Virus record (IMG/VR): IMGVR_UViG_3300026382_000006 | Coordinates: 1 to 64,000 of that record | Reading direction: 5' to 3' (one strand) | Length of the DNA stretch: 64,000 nt | Origin: a virus | Made by a program: the position numbers and the translations under genes | Notes under the pieces: generated by a model | What the model was told of the DNA's origin: nothing | The model's database searches: none | The model's input: the letters and a program-made list of their open reading frames with translations, nothing else | In this document: positions 1 to 49,098 of the stretch, in pieces | How the letters are laid out: each line of letters starts with the position of its first letter | How positions within the stretch are numbered: the stretch's first letter is position 1

Positions 1-755
1 TTTCTCAGCATATTCTACTATTTCTCTTATTGACTCACTCATGTTTTCTTTTTCACAATGGTAAAATACTTTTACATCTATTATTTCACCTTTTACTTTA
101 GCTTTAGGAGTAGTCTTTATAAATCCTTGTAAAATATCTAAAGCCTCTTCTGATAATTTACCAGTTTCATCCAGTATACTAGTACCTATCGTCATTAATG
201 CGGTGTTAGGATTTACTTTATCTCCTATTTTTAATACATTACTAATTTCATCTGTACAATCTAAAATTACTGATTTGCTTTTAACTTGTTCTATTTCTGC
301 TAGATCAGCTATCTTTTTAGATATAGCACTACTATCTTCAAATGTTTCATTTATTTCCATTAAAGCTGTTGTTACTGTAAGATATGGTTTATAAGTTACT
401 TTTGTTTTATCGAAGAAATCAGGTTCGAAGAAACTACTATCGTAATATAAAACATCTCCATGTTTAACTGTTTGCCCTTTTACAACATTAGATTTCATTC
501 TGTGTATAAAACTACTATTTGATTCTTCTTTACTATTCCAATCTTTAAATATATAAGTTTTCTTACCTTTATTTTTGTAATTAACTATTATTTTATTTTT
601 ACTAGCTGTTTCTACTATACCATCATCAATAGCAAATCCTATAAACTTTTTAGGTAATCTATAAGCTAATACAGAGTCGTAACCAGTCCTTACAGGATAA
701 ACTGTAGCATTTTTCATGGGTATTACGTGTGAATTTTGGATATTTATAAAATTTA
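1..755 (-). CDS. RNA polymerase beta subunit, second exon (partial, runs off the window)
   Basis: Reading the minus strand from about 755 downwards gives an uninterrupted frame to the window edge. It contains VRTGYDSVLA (aligns with VGTGMERAVA of bacterial RpoB), GFAIDDGIVE and FIHRMKSNVVKGQTVKHGDVLYYD-like text (first part aligns with the INQ..V..GE.V..GDVLADG region of RpoB). These follow directly in RpoB order after the DDSKR block that ends the first exon at 1076, so the two stretches are one protein split by an intron. The exact exon start is uncertain: a G at 756 or a G at 835 could be the intron end. The C-terminal half of beta lies beyond position 1. Confidence 0.75.
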
Positions 756-1075
756 CGATGTGTTCAGTATAGGACGCCACTCCTATACCCGAAGTTAATG
801 TTATGGATATAAAACTTTTCTTTATACCCATAATCATTAACTTCTGCTCTATGTTACCATAGAGACCAGACTATATCTTCACCCTCGACTTTACGTTAGG
901 GTGGGCGGCTTTTCGAGTGCCAGTGGCTTGCACCCTACTCCCTCACGGGATAGTCGTTACACCTTCTACCTATCCAGTCGTAACCAGATAGGAGCTTGGC
1001 TCGGGATTGTCCTAACCAAAATCACCTCTTTTATTAGATTAGGAGTTCCCCCGAATTAACCGCCTTAATTTTCCT
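756..1075 (-). other. Group I self-splicing intron, no ORF
   Basis: Minus-strand RNA shows the group I core in order: GGGGGAACTCC (complement of about 1041-1052), CAATCCCGAGCCAAGCT (P4-like, complement of 993-1009), then CGACTA (complement near 951-956) which pairs with TAGTC in AGATATAGTC (complement of 869-878), the classic P7. A 7-bp hairpin follows (847-864), and another at 768-787. The intron interrupts the beta subunit gene between the DDSKR and VRTGYD blocks. No homing endonuclease ORF fits inside. The 5' site is probably after U1076 or U1086. The 3' end is after G756 (preferred from RpoB spacing) or G835. Confidence 0.85.
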
Positions 1076-4000
1076 AGTTGTTTCCAACTAGTGAGGCTAA
1101 AGTTAACCTCTTTGAGTCATCTGTTGTACTAAATGGTGCTAATAATGCAGAGGTACTTAAAATGTTACTAAAACTTAATTCTTTTTCTTCACCTTTCATT
1201 CCTCTTAAATTTTTTATTATTGGATTAGCGGATAAGTATGCCGAAATACCGACATCACCACTATCTTTATGACCTTCAGAGATTACGCCTACATCATCAG
1301 GATGCAATTCTCTAGTACTCTTACTCATTGATTCCTTTTTTCTACCTAGAAAACCAGTATAAGTGACATCTTCTTTTTGTTTTAGATATATTATAGGATT
1401 TAAGTCGTCTTCTAATACACTAGCACTATCTTCATTTAGTATTCTCCATACACTATAAGGATCAAATACTAATCTATTTCTACCAAAGAATTCTTCATTC
1501 TTTTTATTTCTTATAGCTTCTACCATTTTGTTATATACCATCTGAGGAATTCTTTCATAACCTTTGATAACATAACCTTTTAAACTCTGTGGATGTATAT
1601 AATTATCATCAGCCAGCAATTCATTAGCTCTTAATAATAAACCAGTAAACGTAGTAGGTTCTTTCATTTGTTTTAATGTATTTGCTGTAACTGGATCTAT
1701 AAAAAGATTATCTAATAACTCTATTTCAGTAATTACATTTAAAGGTATTTTTAAATCTCTGAAAAAGCTTAGCATCAAATCTTTATCGTTAAATACATTA
1801 TCTGGATAACTTTTACATTCTTTTTTCCAATGTGTTAATCCTTTTAATAACATCATTTCTTTTTCATTTTTTGGTTTAACGAAATAGGTACTGAATTTGG
1901 TTTTAAATACAATTGTATTTTCATCTTTATTTTGTTTATTACCTTCATATTTCACATAGTCTATATTTAGTATTTTAAACATATTGTCTAATCCTAAGTA
2001 AAACATTAGCATAAATACTACTGGTGTATAATTTTTATAAATCTTTACCATTGAATAATCTCTAGTTAGTTTCTTTTTATCCAAACCTACAACATCAATC
2101 AGTTTACCTATTTTAATATACTTTTTATTTTTATACCTGTATAGTACATTATCTTTATCTATTACTAATATGTCGTTATCTATTGTACCGCAGATAACAT
2201 AACCATCCTTTTCAATATCTTCTAATTTTAGACCTTTCTCTATTACTATCTTCTCTCTATTTTCATAATCGAAATTAAAAAATATGTTATTTAGTCTAAA
2301 AGATTTTATATATCTCATAAACCATGTATATTCTATGGGTAACTTTAAATCAGGCGGAATTTCGTTACCTAAAACTAAGTTTCTAATTTTATTATTATCT
2401 AGCATTTTAGTCAATTGTTTTTTAATACTAAAACCTATATCGTATTTTTTAAGAGGTGCTTTATCTATAAATAGTTTACCATATGCACTCGACAGACTTA
2501 CTCTATTAAAAGCAATTTTTTTAATAGGCAGATCTTGTCTACTTTTTCGTAATAAATATCTGTTACCAGACATACTATAAACACCGTCTTCGTTTATTGT
2601 AGGTAGTTTTAATTTAACTTTATGAGTACCTTTTTTAATATCTGTAAAAGTAATTTCATGTATTTCATATTCTCCTAATATAGAATCTTCTTTTTCCACT
2701 TTATAATCTTTAACTAGCATACCTGCTCTTTGTAGACTGAACACAGTCCTAGTGATATCTTTTTTATAAACATGTTTTATATATTTTTTATCTATAGTTG
2801 TAATAGGGTCTTCTAGCATCTTTTTATCGAATGCTACTTTTACATTTGGTAATTTCTTTTCTTCACTCTTTATTTCTATTTCATGTTCACTTATTTCTAG
2901 TAAGTCTTTTATAGTATTTTCATCACCAAACGGCGAAGGAGTATTTAAGACTTCTTCAAATTGTTTCTTTATCTTCGTTAATTTTTTATTATCTAAATCC
3001 ATGTCCTTTGCTATAGCTTCTAATGTTTTATCTACATCAGTAGCAGGATTATCATCAGTAGTGAGCATTTCTTTTATATGTTTGTATTTGGGAATAGTCT
3101 TTATCTCTTCATCTATGTCTAATTCGGTTTCTTCATCTTTTTCTATTATCTTATCTATTTCCTTTTCATCGTCTATTACTGTATTATCATCGATTTCCTC
3201 TACCAGATATACTTTACTATTATCTTCATTATCTACTATGTTTGATAAATTAGTTTTTTCTTTTATATTTAGTATATCTTTTATTTTTTCTTCATGTTTA
3301 CCTGTTTCAATCTCATCTACGGTAAAACCAGGTAATACATACATCGCATGTAACATATAGTGTAATAATTTAAACATTTTATCAGGTTCTACTTTTGTAT
3401 TGTAATCTAGTTCGGGATATGTTTTAAGCATGCTGAATAAAATCCCTAAATTTATTATAATACCTTTATCTTCAAGGACAAATAGAATATTCACACTGTC
3501 CAAATCTCTTTTTTTCCTTATTAGGTCATATTTAGTTTCTATTTTAAATTCTTTAATTATTGCTTTAAATAGTTCTAAAATGTTCAATCTGTTATAATCG
3601 AAAAATAGATTTAATAACTGTCTATTAGTCCATTTTTGATGTATGTATTTTAATAAGATTTGTCTACTATAAAATGTAGATGGTAAATTCATTATTACAA
3701 AGTGATTAGGTTGTTCACTAGGTTTAAAATTCATATTGTTAATGTTTATTATATTCGAAAATATTGTGTTACCTATATTTCTAAATTTATAGTATTCGTC
3801 TAAATATAAGTTTTTATACCTATAGAATTGATTTATAAAACTATAATTGTAAATTATATTATATTTCCTAATTAGACTATGATTGTTTTCTATTTGTTTG
3901 TTTAATTTACTAGGTGGTACAATTTTAAAATCCGTAAATCTTCTTTTTAGATTATTATTAAATGTAGTTTCCGATACTGTTTTCTTTTTAACATCAAATA

Positions 4001-4223
4001 CTGGTTTATTATAATCTACTAAGTTTGTAACTATTCCTTTTTTAATATTTCTTAAATACGAAATATTTGTTGTTGGGAAAATGTTACTATCCATATTATA
4101 AAAATGTATAATAGTATTTCTAGGGTAGAAAATATTATCTAAATTAATCAATTTCGGAGTGACAAAGTCAGTCATTTTCCTAGTACCGTATTTTCTATAC
4201 CATTCTTTAAATCTTAAATCCAT
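1076..4223 (-). CDS. RNA polymerase beta subunit, first exon
   Basis: About 1049 residues are read before a stop that lies just inside the intron (1074-1076). Near the end, TRELHPDDVGVISEG..DSGDVGISAYLS aligns with [25 protein letters not shown] of RpoB, and TTDDSKRLTLASLV aligns with the DDANRALMGANM block that lines the active centre. An acidic, low-complexity stretch (roughly residues 310-450) looks like a phage-specific insertion. The start ATG at 4223 has AAGGAG six bases upstream and a TGAAAA element at 4245-4250. With the beta' pieces at 7685-9310 and 57238-58515 it forms a phiKZ-type multisubunit phage polymerase; virion or non-virion type cannot be told. Confidence 0.85.
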
Positions 4224-6314: not shown

Positions 6315-7202
6315 TTAAAGAGATTTTAAATAATTTACTAAATTTTCTTTAGTATCGAATACTGCAAAGAATCCATTTTTATTTATAAAGATTTTACCAG
6401 GTACATCTTTATCTATTAAAATTCTCCCTCTTTTATCGAAATCACCTGGTATAGTCGGTACTGTTTGTGCTTTCCAGGTATCACGTTTTTCATCATACCA
6501 GATTACTATGTCTACCATAGTATACGGTCTTTTTAACACAGGGAGTACTTCGTTCCAGAATGGTATAAAACCTTTTGAAAATTCAAGTACTCTGTTCGGA
6601 TCTCCTTTATTTGTTTGTTTAGTTAGATCGTCTATAAAAGTACTTTCGTTTAATATCCTATTTTCAATTTCTGGTAATTTTTCTCCTTTTCTTTTAAGAC
6701 TAGAAAACACTTTATAAACAATATTAACAGCAGTATTAAAATTATTTACTTGTTCCTTACCATATGGGTCTTCAGCGTTATATTTCGATACAATATAAGG
6801 TAATTCTCCTGGTAAAGCTTTTCTTTGCCCTACATCGTGTAAATCTACAATGTTAATTATTTTGTCTAATTCTGGGATAATAAATCTTGGAATTAGATTT
6901 TGCTCTTTTAACCATTTGTAGACAAGACCGGCCGCAGCTAACCCATTTTCAGATCCCCATTGATGATGATCGAACATAAGTTGTGCAGCATTATGGTCTC
7001 TACCTACATCTACTATAAATACCTCATCGGCTGTTTTTAAACCTAACTCTTTTAATTCTTTACCAGTAAATTTATTATGGTTTACTCTTTCGATATAAAC
7101 TTCATCTTCATCTTTGGCATAAAAACATTTTATTAGCGCACAAGCAGTTACTTCATCTGCGTGAAAAATACCCTCATGTGTATAGATTTTTATTTTAGCC
7201 AT
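6315..7202 (-). CDS. MYG1/UPF0160-family metal-dependent exonuclease-like protein
   Basis: The 295-aa protein matches the MYG1 (UPF0160) family, DHH-like metal-dependent phosphoesterases for which cellular members act as 3'-5' exoribonucleases. Visible motifs are THEGIFHADE (residues 8-17), the D-containing FIVDVG (about 63-67), FDHHQ (77-81) and IVDLHDVG (about 119-126), all expected metal ligands. The length is slightly shorter than cellular MYG1 and seems complete. The start at 7202 has AAAAGGAG and an early-type promoter motif. Carriage of this family by a phage is unusual; RNA turnover or nucleotide salvage is an inference. The family call is firm; the activity is untested. Confidence 0.88.
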   Translation of the reverse strand: MAKIKIYTHEGIFHADEVTACALIKCFYAKDEDEVYIERVNHNKFTGKELKELGLKTADEVFIVDVGRDHNAAQLMFDHHQWGSENGLAAAGLVYKWLKEQNLIPRFIIPELDKIINIVDLHDVGQRKALPGELPYIVSKYNAEDPYGKEQVNNFNTAVNIVYKVFSSLKRKGEKLPEIENRILNESTFIDDLTKQTNKGDPNRVLEFSKGFIPFWNEVLPVLKRPYTMVDIVIWYDEKRDTWKAQTVPTIPGDFDKRGRILIDKDVPGKIFINKNGFFAVFDTKENLVNYLKSL

Positions 7203-7232
7203 TTCATACTCCTTTTATTTTTTTATTACGTC

Positions 7233-7245
7233 TTAACAATATATA
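7233..7245 (-). promoter_or_regulatory. Putative early promoter TATATATTGTTAA
   Basis: Minus-strand TATATATTGTTAA about 31-43 bases before the MYG1-like start, placed between two minus-strand genes, so its orientation is unambiguous. Confidence 0.5.
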
Positions 7246-7263
7246 AATAAAGAAAGTTGAATG

Positions 7264-7635
7264 TTAAATATAATCTATTTTTAAGTAATATGTAATCCAT
7301 TTACCAGATTTAGATAATAACGCAAATTTTATAATACCACCGTTATTCCACCAATTCTTTTTTATTTTTAGTATTTGAATCATAGATTCTTTAAAACTGA
7401 TAGGAACTCCTTCCGGATTAAATAGTTGTTTTTCTAGTATAAATAGTTTATCCAATGTTTTGGAAGCAGATTTAAGTTTCCATTTTAACATTGTTTCTAG
7501 TATTTCTTTTAATAGTCTAGAATCAATACTTTCTATGCTCGAGATGAAACCGGCATATTTAATAAATATCTTCTCTAGATCCTGAATACTAGTTTGACAT
7601 ATTTCTAATCCTATTTCGTTGTATAAGTGAAACAT
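7264..7635 (-). CDS. Hypothetical protein, 123 aa
   Basis: Function unknown. AAAGGAG precedes the ATG at 7635. The protein is mostly helical (EICQTSIQDLEKIFIKY, LLKEILETMLKWKLK) with a short beta tail. It follows the beta' N-terminal gene by 50 bases and may be co-transcribed with it, although TGAATGAATC upstream could be a separate weak class 2 element. Confidence 0.65.
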   Translation of the reverse strand: MFHLYNEIGLEICQTSIQDLEKIFIKYAGFISSIESIDSRLLKEILETMLKWKLKSASKTLDKLFILEKQLFNPEGVPISFKESMIQILKIKKNWWNNGGIIKFALLSKSGKWITYYLKIDYI

Positions 7636-7684
7636 TTAATTCTCCTTTAAAAAAGATTCATTCAGTAGAGGTATCAATATACCT

Positions 7685-9310
7685 CTACTCTGTAAATATT
7701 TTTAATGTTAAATTAGAAATATCATTACTAGCACTGTATATTAGTTTACCATTTTCGTCCAGATAATATTTAGCACTATTCAATATGTTTTCTAGTTCTT
7801 CTATAGATTCTTCTTCCATTACTACGTTAGCGGACATTTTATCACCATCAAAGTCAGCATCTAATCTATCTAGATGCGTAATATGCGGAGACATAGATGA
7901 AAAGAATGGTTCATTCAAGTTAGGATATTCGTATAACGTTACACCTTCGGCCTGACCATGTAACCTTAGGTTTACTACTCTAGGATTTAAATTTACTTTT
8001 ATATAGAATTTAGTAGGATACACCGAACCTAAACCTGTAATCGGATATCTAGTAACAAATCCTGGATATCTATCTGCTACGTCATATAAGGCAAGATATA
8101 ACAATTCTATATAAGTCATAGGTCTTATGTATTTTTTATTATATGTATATGGTAAACTGTTTACATCATCTATTAATTCAATATTCTTACCATCGTCGTA
8201 TAAAAGAAACATATAATGGTCATCTACAATAATAGGAGATCTTTTAATTTCGTCTTGTGATAATTTATTAATAGTATTTTCCAAGCCTTCATCTGTTATC
8301 CAGTTACTTCTTGTTTTTTCACTAATTTCTACCATTTCCTTTTCAAGAGTCTTTTTGTTATATAAATAGCTCATATTACTATTTTGGTCAAATACTCTAT
8401 TTAAAAATTTAGTACGTATTTGATAAATAGTAACTGGTGTAATTGCTTTAGCAAATTGAAATATACCTATTACTGTGTGGTCCATTTTTGGTCTATTAGG
8501 TTGTTTATTATGTCTTATTTTTATAGGTAAGGCTGTAATTACGTTTCTTGTACCATACGTGATTGTTCTTTTAGTCCACTTACCTTGTATAAAACCTTCT
8601 TTACCAGATAATATGTTTTCTATATATTCATAAATATCTAATACTGCTTTTTGTAGTCTGTTTTTAACAGTATTTATTATAGGATTGTCTTTTGCATCAA
8701 TTCTAAATCTCTTTGCAGTATTAGCTACTGTTAATAATTTTCTATATAGATTGTTTATTTCATCTTCTAGTATTTTACCGTTTGGTAATTCAGTTCTATC
8801 TCTCATGCCTGCAGGAATTACTAAATATTTACTTATTAAAACATCTTTAGCTTTGTATTTCTTAATAAAGTTTATTTTATTTTTTCTTAAATCAGAATCT
8901 GTTTCTCTAAATTTAATCTCGTCAAAATGCTTAATAAAAAAGTTATAACCAGTTTCACCTGTTGTTTTATCAGCAGGTAAAAAGTTTTTAATTTTATCAT
9001 CCCAGATAGCATATTTGCTACCATCTAATATTCCTTTATATAGAGATTCTAAGCTAATTAGATGTCTATAAATTAACGGATGAAATACCGGAATGTGTAA
9101 ATCTATATATCCGAATTTCTCCATTCTTTCTCTGCTACCTTTAGGACCAAAAATTGTAGACGAGAATAGACCGTCTTCTTTAAAGACAGTAGAATTTTGT
9201 TCATATGTATCTTTAGACTTTACTTCGCCTAGATACTTTATAAGATCTGTTGTGAGTATTAATAATTCTATATTAAAAGGTATTTTTGGTTTAAATGTCG
9301 TATTTTTCAT
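7685..9310 (-). CDS. RNA polymerase beta' subunit, N-terminal part
   Basis: The 541-aa protein carries the catalytic magnesium-binding motif in LDADFDGDKMSAN (about residues 480-492), the equivalent of NADFDGDQMA in beta'. Upstream, GLFSSTIFGP (clamp region) and GKWTKRTITYGTRNVI (aligns with GKRVDYSGRSVIVVGP) occur in correct order. It stops some 50 residues after DFDGD, whereas the bridge helix and trigger loop are in a separate gene at 57238-58515. This is a genetically split beta', as known for phiKZ-like phages. The start at 9310 has AAAGGA and TGAAAA (9330-9335). Confidence 0.93.
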   Translation of the reverse strand: MKNTTFKPKIPFNIELLILTTDLIKYLGEVKSKDTYEQNSTVFKEDGLFSSTIFGPKGSRERMEKFGYIDLHIPVFHPLIYRHLISLESLYKGILDGSKYAIWDDKIKNFLPADKTTGETGYNFFIKHFDEIKFRETDSDLRKNKINFIKKYKAKDVLISKYLVIPAGMRDRTELPNGKILEDEINNLYRKLLTVANTAKRFRIDAKDNPIINTVKNRLQKAVLDIYEYIENILSGKEGFIQGKWTKRTITYGTRNVITALPIKIRHNKQPNRPKMDHTVIGIFQFAKAITPVTIYQIRTKFLNRVFDQNSNMSYLYNKKTLEKEMVEISEKTRSNWITDEGLENTINKLSQDEIKRSPIIVDDHYMFLLYDDGKNIELIDDVNSLPYTYNKKYIRPMTYIELLYLALYDVADRYPGFVTRYPITGLGSVYPTKFYIKVNLNPRVVNLRLHGQAEGVTLYEYPNLNEPFFSSMSPHITHLDRLDADFDGDKMSANVVMEEESIEELENILNSAKYYLDENGKLIYSASNDISNLTLKIFTE

Positions 9311-39040: not shown

Positions 39041-39351
39041 TTCTGATCTCCTTTAGTAAATTTACTCTTAAAATAATTAGTCAGACAAATGAAGTTATTC
39101 CAATCGTATTCGGTACATTTTTGTCTAAAAGATTTTTTAAAATTTGTATGGAAATTAGTATGGCATTCTCTACATAGAGTAACACAATTATCTATTAAAT
39201 ATCTTTGATTAGGGTGATAACTAGCGTCATTAATATGGTGTACTGCAAGATCATCTGACTGACCGCATATAACACATCTATATCCATCTCTCTTAATTAC
39301 CTTTTCTTTAGTTTCTTTCCATTTTCTAGAATTTCTCCAATTTTTACTCAT
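39037..39351 (-). CDS. Free-standing HNH endonuclease, 104 aa
   Basis: CVICG (C26, C29), LAVHHIND (H38, H39), NCVTLCRECHTNFH (N55, C60, C63, H64) form a zinc-supported HNH nuclease domain similar to McrA/phage HNH proteins. AAAGGA precedes the ATG. It may be a homing-type mobile nuclease, a packaging-associated nuclease or host-DNA degrader. It is not inside an intron; the only intron seen (756-1075) has no ORF. It heads a coupled operon of small genes. Confidence 0.88.
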   Translation of the reverse strand: MSKNWRNSRKWKETKEKVIKRDGYRCVICGQSDDLAVHHINDASYHPNQRYLIDNCVTLCRECHTNFHTNFKKSFRQKCTEYDWNNFICLTNYFKSKFTKGDQK

Positions 39352-48281: not shown

Positions 48282-48453
48282 TTCGTACTCCCGTCAGTAA
48301 GTTATTCAAAAAAAGATGAGAAAAATATAGTAAATGGTTAATTATGTGCCTACTAATTTATAAAAAAATGTTTTATCTTCTTCTGATTTTTCAATAACTA
48401 TATTTTTTGTTTATTATGGATTATATGGATATATAAAACTTAGTTTATATGTT

Positions 48454-49098
48454 TTAGTTTTCTGATTTAAAAGTCTTAAATGGATTCACTAATATAGTAA
48501 ATGTATATTTGTAATGTTTAGGTAATTCACTTACGTTAAAGTTCTTCCATCCTATATTACATTTTATTCCATATTTAATAAATGGATATTTCCATCTTAA
48601 ACGATACATAGGGTACATCTTTCCATTCTTTTTATAGACTTCAGTATACTCGAAACCTGTTCTATTTGGTTTGGAATCCAAACAATTATTATAATCATTA
48701 TTATATATTTTAGTAACGCATTCAGATTTTTTAAATCCTTTTCTGAATCCTATATGTCTTACAGCTATACCATTGAATCCTAGTTTAAGACCTAGATTAT
48801 GAACAGGATTTCTTAAAACTGTCCAATTGAATCTAGTCCAAAAATTACGTTTACCATTGACATGCACTAGAAGGTAATATATGTCGCCGTCTATTCCATC
48901 ATCGTCATTGCCCCAAATAGCATTTATCCATTTATCTTTGAATCTATGGTTAGGTCTAGATGCCTTACTGATAGGATCAAAAGGTTCAATACGATTGAAT
49001 AGTAATGCTAAACCTACCACGATAGGTCCAATGATTATAAAAAATACCTGGATAATAAATACTCCTAGTATCCTGAGTATATTTTTTAAATGTTTCAT
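48454..49098 (-). CDS. Membrane-anchored protein, 214 aa (DUF7338-type pattern)
   Basis: One N-terminal membrane segment (ILGVFIIQVFFIIIGPIVVGLALLF) followed by a soluble Arg/Asn/Trp-rich domain (RNPVHNLGLKLGF, GFKKSECVTKIYN). The layout resembles small phage proteins of the DUF7338 type. AAGGAG precedes the ATG. Located inside the fibre cluster but not obviously a fibre. A 170-base gap on its 3' side (48282-48453) holds no gene I can support. Confidence 0.55.
   Translation of the reverse strand: MKHLKNILRILGVFIIQVFFIIIGPIVVGLALLFNRIEPFDPISKASRPNHRFKDKWINAIWGNDDDGIDGDIYYLLVHVNGKRNFWTRFNWTVLRNPVHNLGLKLGFNGIAVRHIGFRKGFKKSECVTKIYNNDYNNCLDSKPNRTGFEYTEVYKKNGKMYPMYRLRWKYPFIKYGIKCNIGWKNFNVSELPKHYKYTFTILVNPFKTFKSEN

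What the first reader, a model, noticed from the sequence alone, without database searches (positions are those of the whole stretch)
756..1078. Group I intron splitting the catalytic subunit gene of a phage RNA polymerase
The RNA polymerase beta frame stops at 1074, yet the next RpoB block (VRTGYDSVLA onward) is encoded in frame from about 755. The spacer carries a recognisable group I core: GGGGGAACTCC, CAATCCCGAGCCAAGCT and the P7 pair GACTA/TAGTC. It has no ORF. Introns in RNA polymerase genes are known in some phiKZ-like phages, but an ORF-less one at the DDSKR site would be a useful new case.
Basis: partly seen in the sequence, partly recalled or inferred. Interest (0 to 1): 0.75.

Follow-up and report, generated by a model that had tools for sequence, protein, structure and literature searches.

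The report
Self-splicing intron in phage RNA polymerase gene
A large bacterial virus carries a small RNA element with the features of self-removing introns inside its RNA polymerase gene, a type already known in related viruses, and the same genome appears to cut the enzyme's other core gene into three pieces at its catalytic centre, with a middle piece only nine letters long.

Summary
On the minus strand, window 1105..756 is a 350-nt, ORF-less group I intron (Rfam RF00028, 100.2 bits, E 8e-27). It lies in the phiKZ gp178-type (virion RNA polymerase) beta gene of a complete, circular, PhuZ-encoding phage of about 186.1 kb. Predicted splicing 1106|755 gives DDSKR|LNFINIQ, which aligns without gaps to intronless relatives and is clearly the best in-frame option. 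It is a new member of a known kind. phiPA3 carries an endonuclease-bearing intron and 201phi2-1 an ORF-less one 10 nt upstream in the same motif. Aeromonas CF8 and PS2, Klebsiella phiKp_32 and metagenomic phage L032 carry introns at the very same site. Splicing here is inferred, not shown.

Following it up gave a stronger result outside the window. The same genome's other beta' gene (178.4-182.1 kb) has two tandem group I introns inside the catalytic NxDFDGD loop. They flank a predicted 9-nt exon, TTCGACGGT (F-D-G), so each catalytic aspartate codon lies on a different exon. Across relatives, introns sit at four positions within about 10 nt of this loop. A second phage has an 11-nt exon between twin introns in beta.

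The parts
1106..4223 (-). Exon 1 of the gp178-type RNA polymerase beta gene, ending ...STTDDSKR plus the first base (U) of the next codon
   Evidence: ORF and PHROG 3148 match, E 5e-206; splice enumeration
756..1105 (-). ORF-less group I intron, 350 nt; last base 756 is the terminal G
   Evidence: RF00028 100.2 bits, E 8e-27; fold z -8.8; splice sites
1..755 (-). Exon 2 of the beta gene (LNFINIQNSHVIP...). The frame continues across the contig junction to 185741; the spliced protein is 1406 aa
   Evidence: PHROG 3148 positions 1054-1304, E 2e-63; 125-base terminal overlap and full-length translation
1093..1110 (-). P1: exon GAGGU (1110..1106) paired with guide GCCUC (1097..1093), with the U.G pair at the splice site
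   Evidence: same geometry in the L032 intron. P1 alone is reached by 17% of shuffles
1098..1101 (-). P10 guide strand UUUA, pairs with the first four bases of exon 2 (UAAA, 755..752)
   Evidence: conserved in L032
993..1052 (-).
   Evidence: RF00028 alignment
869..955 (-). P7 (GACTA 955..951 / TAGTC 873..869) enclosing extra hairpins read as P7.1/P7.2, P3 and P8; layout typical of subgroup IA
   Evidence: RF00028 alignment; subgroup assignment is inference from the inserted hairpins
767..868 (-). P9 (about 866..849) and long P9.1 (844..791) and P9.2 (788..767) hairpins before the 3' splice site. The ATG at 837, start of the apparent second ORF, lies inside P9.1 and is probably not a real start
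   Evidence: fold; sequence
7685..9310 (-). Context: uninterrupted gp180-type (virion) beta' gene with an intact DADFDGD loop
   Evidence: PHROG 2986 E 1.5e-178; 37% identity to phiPA3 gp212

Best explanation
Window 1105..756 (minus strand) is a self-splicing group I intron, probably subgroup IA, in the beta-subunit gene of the virion-type RNA polymerase of a phiKZ-like phage. Shown by sequence: a complete group I core, a P1/guide helix with the U.G pair at the 5' splice site, a terminal G, a 4-bp P10, and an exon junction that restores an uninterrupted beta protein. Inferred from established group I biochemistry: the core binds guanosine, which attacks 1106|1105; the freed exon then attacks 756|755, giving ...DDSKR|LNFINIQ.... 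It has no homing endonuclease of its own, so if it moves at all it does so by co-conversion or with an enzyme supplied in trans. It is one of a set of introns that sit in the active-centre codons of phage RNA polymerases; the same genome carries two more in its other beta' gene.
For: RF00028 100.2 bits, E 8e-27, full model 1-253, repeated in the genome-wide search. Of 134 stop-free candidates with U before the 5' site and G at the 3' end, 1106/755 scores best against a profile of seven relatives: 354.1 bits, next 347.7. The junction aligns without gaps to intronless relatives (DDPKRVNFIPIQ, DDPKRVSFISIQ). P1 GAGGU:GCCUC and P10 UAAA:UUUA. The closest relative found (L032, 44% identity in exon 2) has an intron at the identical position with the same P1/P10 layout and a pairing-preserving C-to-U change in the guide. 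Most relatives have the gene uninterrupted. In 201phi2-1 the interrupted gene is annotated as one joined CDS identified by mass spectrometry.
Against: No transcript data for this phage. The P1 match alone is not significant (17% of shuffles reach it). Whole-intron similarity to other introns at the same site is too weak for a resolved tree, so common descent with the L032, CF8 or PS2 introns is not established.
Confidence: 0.96

Rival explanations
1. The intron core is dead and the two ORFs are translated as separate subunits (1-1049 aa, and a C-terminal part starting at ATG 837), as in naturally split jumbo-phage RNA polymerase genes.
For: Both ORFs are open and have start codons. Split beta genes occur in this phage group (PMC7598289).
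Against: The core scores 100 bits with intact P4-P7. Exon 1 would end in a non-homologous tail (LTLASLVGNN) and exon 2 would start inside hairpin P9.1. The split would fall inside an invariant active-centre motif.
Confidence: 0.03
2. The intron splices but is chiefly a regulatory element, for example delaying vRNAP assembly until splicing conditions are met, rather than a neutral parasite.
For: Phage introns cluster in core replication genes, and an on-switch role has been proposed (PMC11878797).
Against: Presence is patchy among relatives, which fits parasites better than an essential switch. Nothing here tests timing.
Confidence: 0.1
3. Assembly or strain-mixture artefact joining intron-plus and intron-minus variants.
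For: It is a metagenome contig.
Against: Exact in-frame junctions, terminal G, P1/P10, an intron at the same site in an independent contig (L032), and isolate genomes with the same arrangement.
Confidence: 0.01

Closest known systems
phiPA3 gp211/gp210/gp209 vRNAP intron (Birkholz et al. 2024, PMC11620839; L010)
   Same: Group I intron in the orthologous vRNAP beta gene (phiKZ gp178), in the same conserved DDxKR motif; RF00028 67.8 bits
   Different: Inserted right after DD, 10 nt upstream of this site; about 1.35 kb and encodes HNH endonuclease gp210, whereas this one is 350 nt and ORF-less
201phi2-1 gp273/274 intron (EU197055, L011)
   Same: ORF-less, 336 nt, same gene; annotated as an interrupted joined CDS found by mass spectrometry; RF00028 87.4 bits
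   Different: Site after DD, not after DDxKR+1
Introns in Aeromonas CF8 and PS2, Klebsiella phiKp_32 and IMG/VR L032 beta genes
   Same: Identical insertion position (DDxKR plus one base); CF8 (403 nt) and PS2 (391 nt) have no endonuclease gene; RF00028 41.6 and 33.7 bits; L032 shares P1/P10
   Different: Low whole-intron similarity; phiKp_32 copy carries a 350-aa ORF; L032 copy is 561 nt; not annotated as introns in the records
Twort orf142 (23-nt exon) and Coxiella 23S rRNA (34-nt exon) tandem group I introns (PMC10136302); small exon in phiNIT1 rNDPL (PMC11878797)
   Same: Two group I introns flanking a very short exon, comparable to the beta' gene found here
   Different: Exons there are 23 and 34 nt (phiNIT1 size not given in the text read). 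Here the predicted exon is 9 nt and encodes three residues of the catalytic metal-binding loop
EL, phiKp_32 and LucasX introns in the gp180-type beta' gene
   Same: Single group I introns inside the DFDGD loop (EL and phiKp_32 FD|G; LucasX D|F)
   Different: Different paralogue, one intron each, no microexon

Membership tests
Group I self-splicing intron | Conserved core P3-P8 with P7 guanosine-binding helix | tested here: met
   RF00028 full-model match, 100.2 bits, E 8e-27, twice the gathering score
Group I self-splicing intron | 5' exon ends in U paired with G of the internal guide (P1) | tested here: met
   GAGGU|:GCCUC, U1106 with G1097; not significant alone, conserved in L032
Group I self-splicing intron | Intron ends in G | tested here: met
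   G756 at the profile-best junction
Group I self-splicing intron | P10 between guide and 3' exon (common, not universal) | tested here: met
   UAAA:UUUA, 4 bp
Group I self-splicing intron | Excision restores the host reading frame and protein | tested here: met
   Ungapped junction, 354.1 bits vs 347.7 next
Group I self-splicing intron | Guanosine-initiated splicing in vitro or in vivo | not testable with these tools
   No RNA data
Subgroup IA | Extra hairpins (P7.1/P7.2) between P7 5' strand and P3 | tested here: inconclusive
   Rfam alignment shows a hairpin-rich insert between P7 and P3; no subgroup model was run
Mobile (homing) group I intron | Encodes a homing endonuclease | tested here: not met
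   No sense ORF of 50 aa or more confined to 756-1105
Virion RNAP beta (phiKZ gp178 family) | Sequence match over the whole family | tested here: met
   PHROG 3148 positions 2-1304 across both exons; relatives annotated similar to phiKZ gp178

The most novel reading that the evidence does not exclude
In the same phage, the second (nvRNAP-type, PHROG 2987) beta' gene is cut by two tandem group I introns inside the universal catalytic loop, leaving a 9-nt exon TTCGACGGT (F-D-G), so that the three metal-binding aspartates of N-G-D|F-D-G|D-E-M lie on three exons. The nine bases would serve both as P10 partner of intron 1 (UUCGAC, 6 bp) and as P1 strand of intron 2 (GACGGU, 6 bp). These overlap by three bases, so the two guide pairings cannot form at once. 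Skipping the exon would stay in frame and yield a full-length but catalytically dead beta'. More broadly, group I introns have repeatedly entered the two active-centre motifs of phage RNA polymerases at positions a few bases apart.
Probability: 0.85. Interest if true: 0.7.

Novelty: new member of a known kind. Interest (0 to 1): 0.52.

Why it matters
For the given feature: it adds a clean, small, ORF-less intron at a second site of an RNA polymerase motif already known as a weapon site in phage competition (phiPA3 against phiKZ). It would be a compact substrate for in vitro splicing. For the wider result: a phage that must splice three group I introns to make its RNA polymerases, two of them around a predicted 9-nt exon carrying a catalytic aspartate, would go below the short exons between group I introns that I found cited (23 nt in Twort, 34 nt in Coxiella, PMC10136302). 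It would also make two questions testable: how tandem ribozymes share a tiny exon, and whether in-frame skipping produces inactive polymerase. The clustering of distinct insertion sites within about ten bases fits the idea that such introns persist where imprecise loss is lethal.

Tried and rejected
Rfam over 4 kb missed the intron, so absence of a hit at long range is not evidence against one; short stretches were used afterwards. The search for related loci with exon 1 alone and with the 8-sequence alignment gave nothing; exon 2 (P0001) worked. An apparent pair of RF00028 hits in G006 beta' is one intron with an insert, not twin introns. I first took the split beta' gene for the virion type; comparison showed the virion-type gp180 orthologue is intact at 7685-9310 and the split gene is its paralogue. 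A tree of introns was unresolved (2 of 13 inner branches well supported), so I make no claim on descent or on spread from one site to another. A motif search for a paralogous beta with the same DDxKR motif in this genome found none, so the state of that gene is unknown. A signature search found only three group I introns in the genome. The exact 3' splice site in Yaphecito and the 3' exon of BONAISHI were not settled. No P1 of more than 3-4 bp was found for the twin introns of G006 beta, so that case rests on the protein profile and Rfam.

Full report
What is there. The window lies in an IMG/VR virus record of 186,213 bases whose ends overlap by an exact 125 bases, so the genome appears complete and circular, about 186.1 kb, 28% G+C. 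It encodes a phiKZ-type toolkit, including a PhuZ tubulin (PHROG 4733, E 1.7e-38). The gene at the window's left edge, on the minus strand, is an RNA polymerase beta subunit of PHROG 3148, the family of phiKZ gp178; relatives are annotated as similar to gp178. It is read as two ORFs with a 350-base interruption.

The intron. RF00028 matches 1115..847 minus over its full length, 100.2 bits, E 8e-27, and again in the whole-genome search. The stretch folds 8.8 standard deviations better than shuffles. I enumerated splice pairs around both ends and scored each spliced protein against a profile of seven relatives. The best pair that also has a U before the 5' site and a G at the 3' end is 1106|1105 and 756|755 (354.1 bits; next 347.7). 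One pair without those marks scores slightly higher (355.7, one base earlier, giving V instead of L), and three others tie by sliding over identical bases. The product ...STTDDSKR|LNFINIQNSHVIP... aligns without gaps to uninterrupted relatives, and continues across the contig ends to a 1406-aa protein. P1 is GAGGU:GCCUC with the U.G at the cut, and P10 is UAAA:UUUA. Permutation shows that a 5-bp P1 alone occurs in 17% of shuffles, so it is supporting evidence only. The closest relative found, L032 (44% identity in exon 2), has a 561-nt intron at the same position, with the same P1/P10 layout and a guide change (GCCUC to GCUUC) that keeps pairing.

How common and where. A tblastn survey with the spliced junction found 275-280 phage records; most sampled ones are uninterrupted. 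Interrupted genes fall at two neighbouring positions. Site A, right after the two aspartates: phiPA3, 201phi2-1, Serratia phages (Kodama, 2050HW, probably Yaphecito), EL, MIZ-Pa99 and metagenomic G010 and G006; BONAISHI is interrupted there too but its 3' junction was not settled. Site B, after DDxKR plus one base: this window, L032, CF8, PS2, phiKp_32. G006 has introns at both A and one base past B, with an 11-nt exon CCAAAACGAGT between them; the profile prefers this (395.2) over any product without the small exon (378.5), and both cores score above the Rfam cut-off. The CF8 and PS2 introns score 41.6 and 33.7 bits, below the gathering score but E 3e-9 and 5e-7 in their stretches.

The second gene. 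The other RF00028 hit (178713-179088 minus, 74.7 bits) led to a beta' gene of PHROG 2987. Exon 1 (182123..180876) matches profile positions 1-418 and ends ...KAPNGD. Exon 3 (178662..178441) matches from 422 and begins DEMN. The missing positions 419-421 are supplied by TTCGACGGT at 179087..179079. Intron 1 (180875..179088, 1788 nt) carries a 445-aa HNH_3/NUMOD1 protein; the family scans are PHROGs; Pfam. Its core scores 41.6 bits, below the gathering score, E 2e-9 in its stretch. Intron 2 (179078..178663, 416 nt) is ORF-less. Enumeration over 11,278 distinct products ranks this three-exon model first (133.0 bits; next 127.8; best without microexon 117.2). Intron 1 has a 6-bp P1 (GGUGAU:GUCACC) and a 6-bp P10 to the microexon (UUCGAC:GUCGAG); intron 2 has a 6-bp P1 using microexon bases GACGGU and no P10. 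The model restores NGDFDGDEMN, matching the universal NADFDGD loop. The virion-type beta' gene (7685-9310) is intact.

Sites in the beta' loop across phages: D|F (this intron 1, G002, and LucasX in the other paralogue), one base into F (G004), FD|G (G005, and EL and phiKp_32 in the other paralogue), FDG|D (this intron 2, G010, G006); intronless in G008, G009 and, in the gp180 paralogue, phiPA3 and Viktualia.

Mechanism. Group I chemistry is inferred from the core. For the tandem pair, the nine exon bases are claimed by two guides that overlap by three bases, so the two introns should act one after the other. Skipping is known for short exons between group I introns (Twort 23 nt, Coxiella 34 nt; PMC10136302; also SIOphi TerL, PMC11878797); here it would stay in frame and delete F-D-G.

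Relation to the literature. Birkholz et al. (PMC11620839) describe the phiPA3 intron after the two aspartates of the same gene, its nicking HNH enzyme and its role in competition with phiKZ. The 201phi2-1 record already joins the two exons and notes mass-spectrometric identification. Searches for papers on introns at the DFDGD loop, or microexons with phage group I introns, returned none on point. That library is partial, so this is weak evidence of novelty. Inteins are also known to sit at active-centre sites of RNA polymerase genes (PMC1635734).

Verdict. The finding is correct and ordinary in kind: a new ORF-less member of the introns already known at this motif. The tandem introns and 9-nt exon in the catalytic loop of the companion gene are the more surprising result and deserve an RNA test.

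Noticed in passing
Contig positions 178441-182123 (L009 8441-12123, L002), minus strand; outside the window: nvRNAP-type beta' gene with two tandem group I introns and a predicted 9-nt exon TTCGACGGT inside the catalytic NxDFDGD loop; intron 1 encodes a 445-aa HNH_3/NUMOD1 protein.
   Followed up: yes
L038 5322-6000 (IMG/VR 3300042566_001512, G006): Twin group I introns in the beta gene at sites A and B' with an 11-nt exon CCAAAACGAGT; this record has about ten RF00028 matches.
   Followed up: partly
L038 about 6900-7191 and L044 about 6882-8538: A further interruption of the beta gene near residue 1338; a group I hit coincides with it in G006 (192335-192577).
   Followed up: no
window 7685-9310 minus: Virion-type beta' gene (gp180 orthologue) with intact DADFDGD; only its paralogue carries introns in this genome, while in EL, phiKp_32 and LucasX it is the gp180-type gene that is interrupted.
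   Followed up: yes
window about 39130-39240 minus: Free-standing HNH-like motif (VHHINDASYHPNQRYLIDNCVTLCRECHTNFH) near the ribonucleotide reductase genes; a possible endonuclease acting in trans.
   Followed up: no
contig ends (window 1-125 and 186089-186213): Exact 125-base terminal overlap, so the genome is probably complete and circular, about 186.1 kb.
   Followed up: yes
L007 17177-18238 minus (contig 157177-158238): PhuZ tubulin homologue, suggesting a nucleus-forming phage.
   Followed up: no
MN453779 (PS2) 48332-49016: Two adjacent group I intron matches elsewhere in this phage, another possible tandem pair with a short exon.
   Followed up: no
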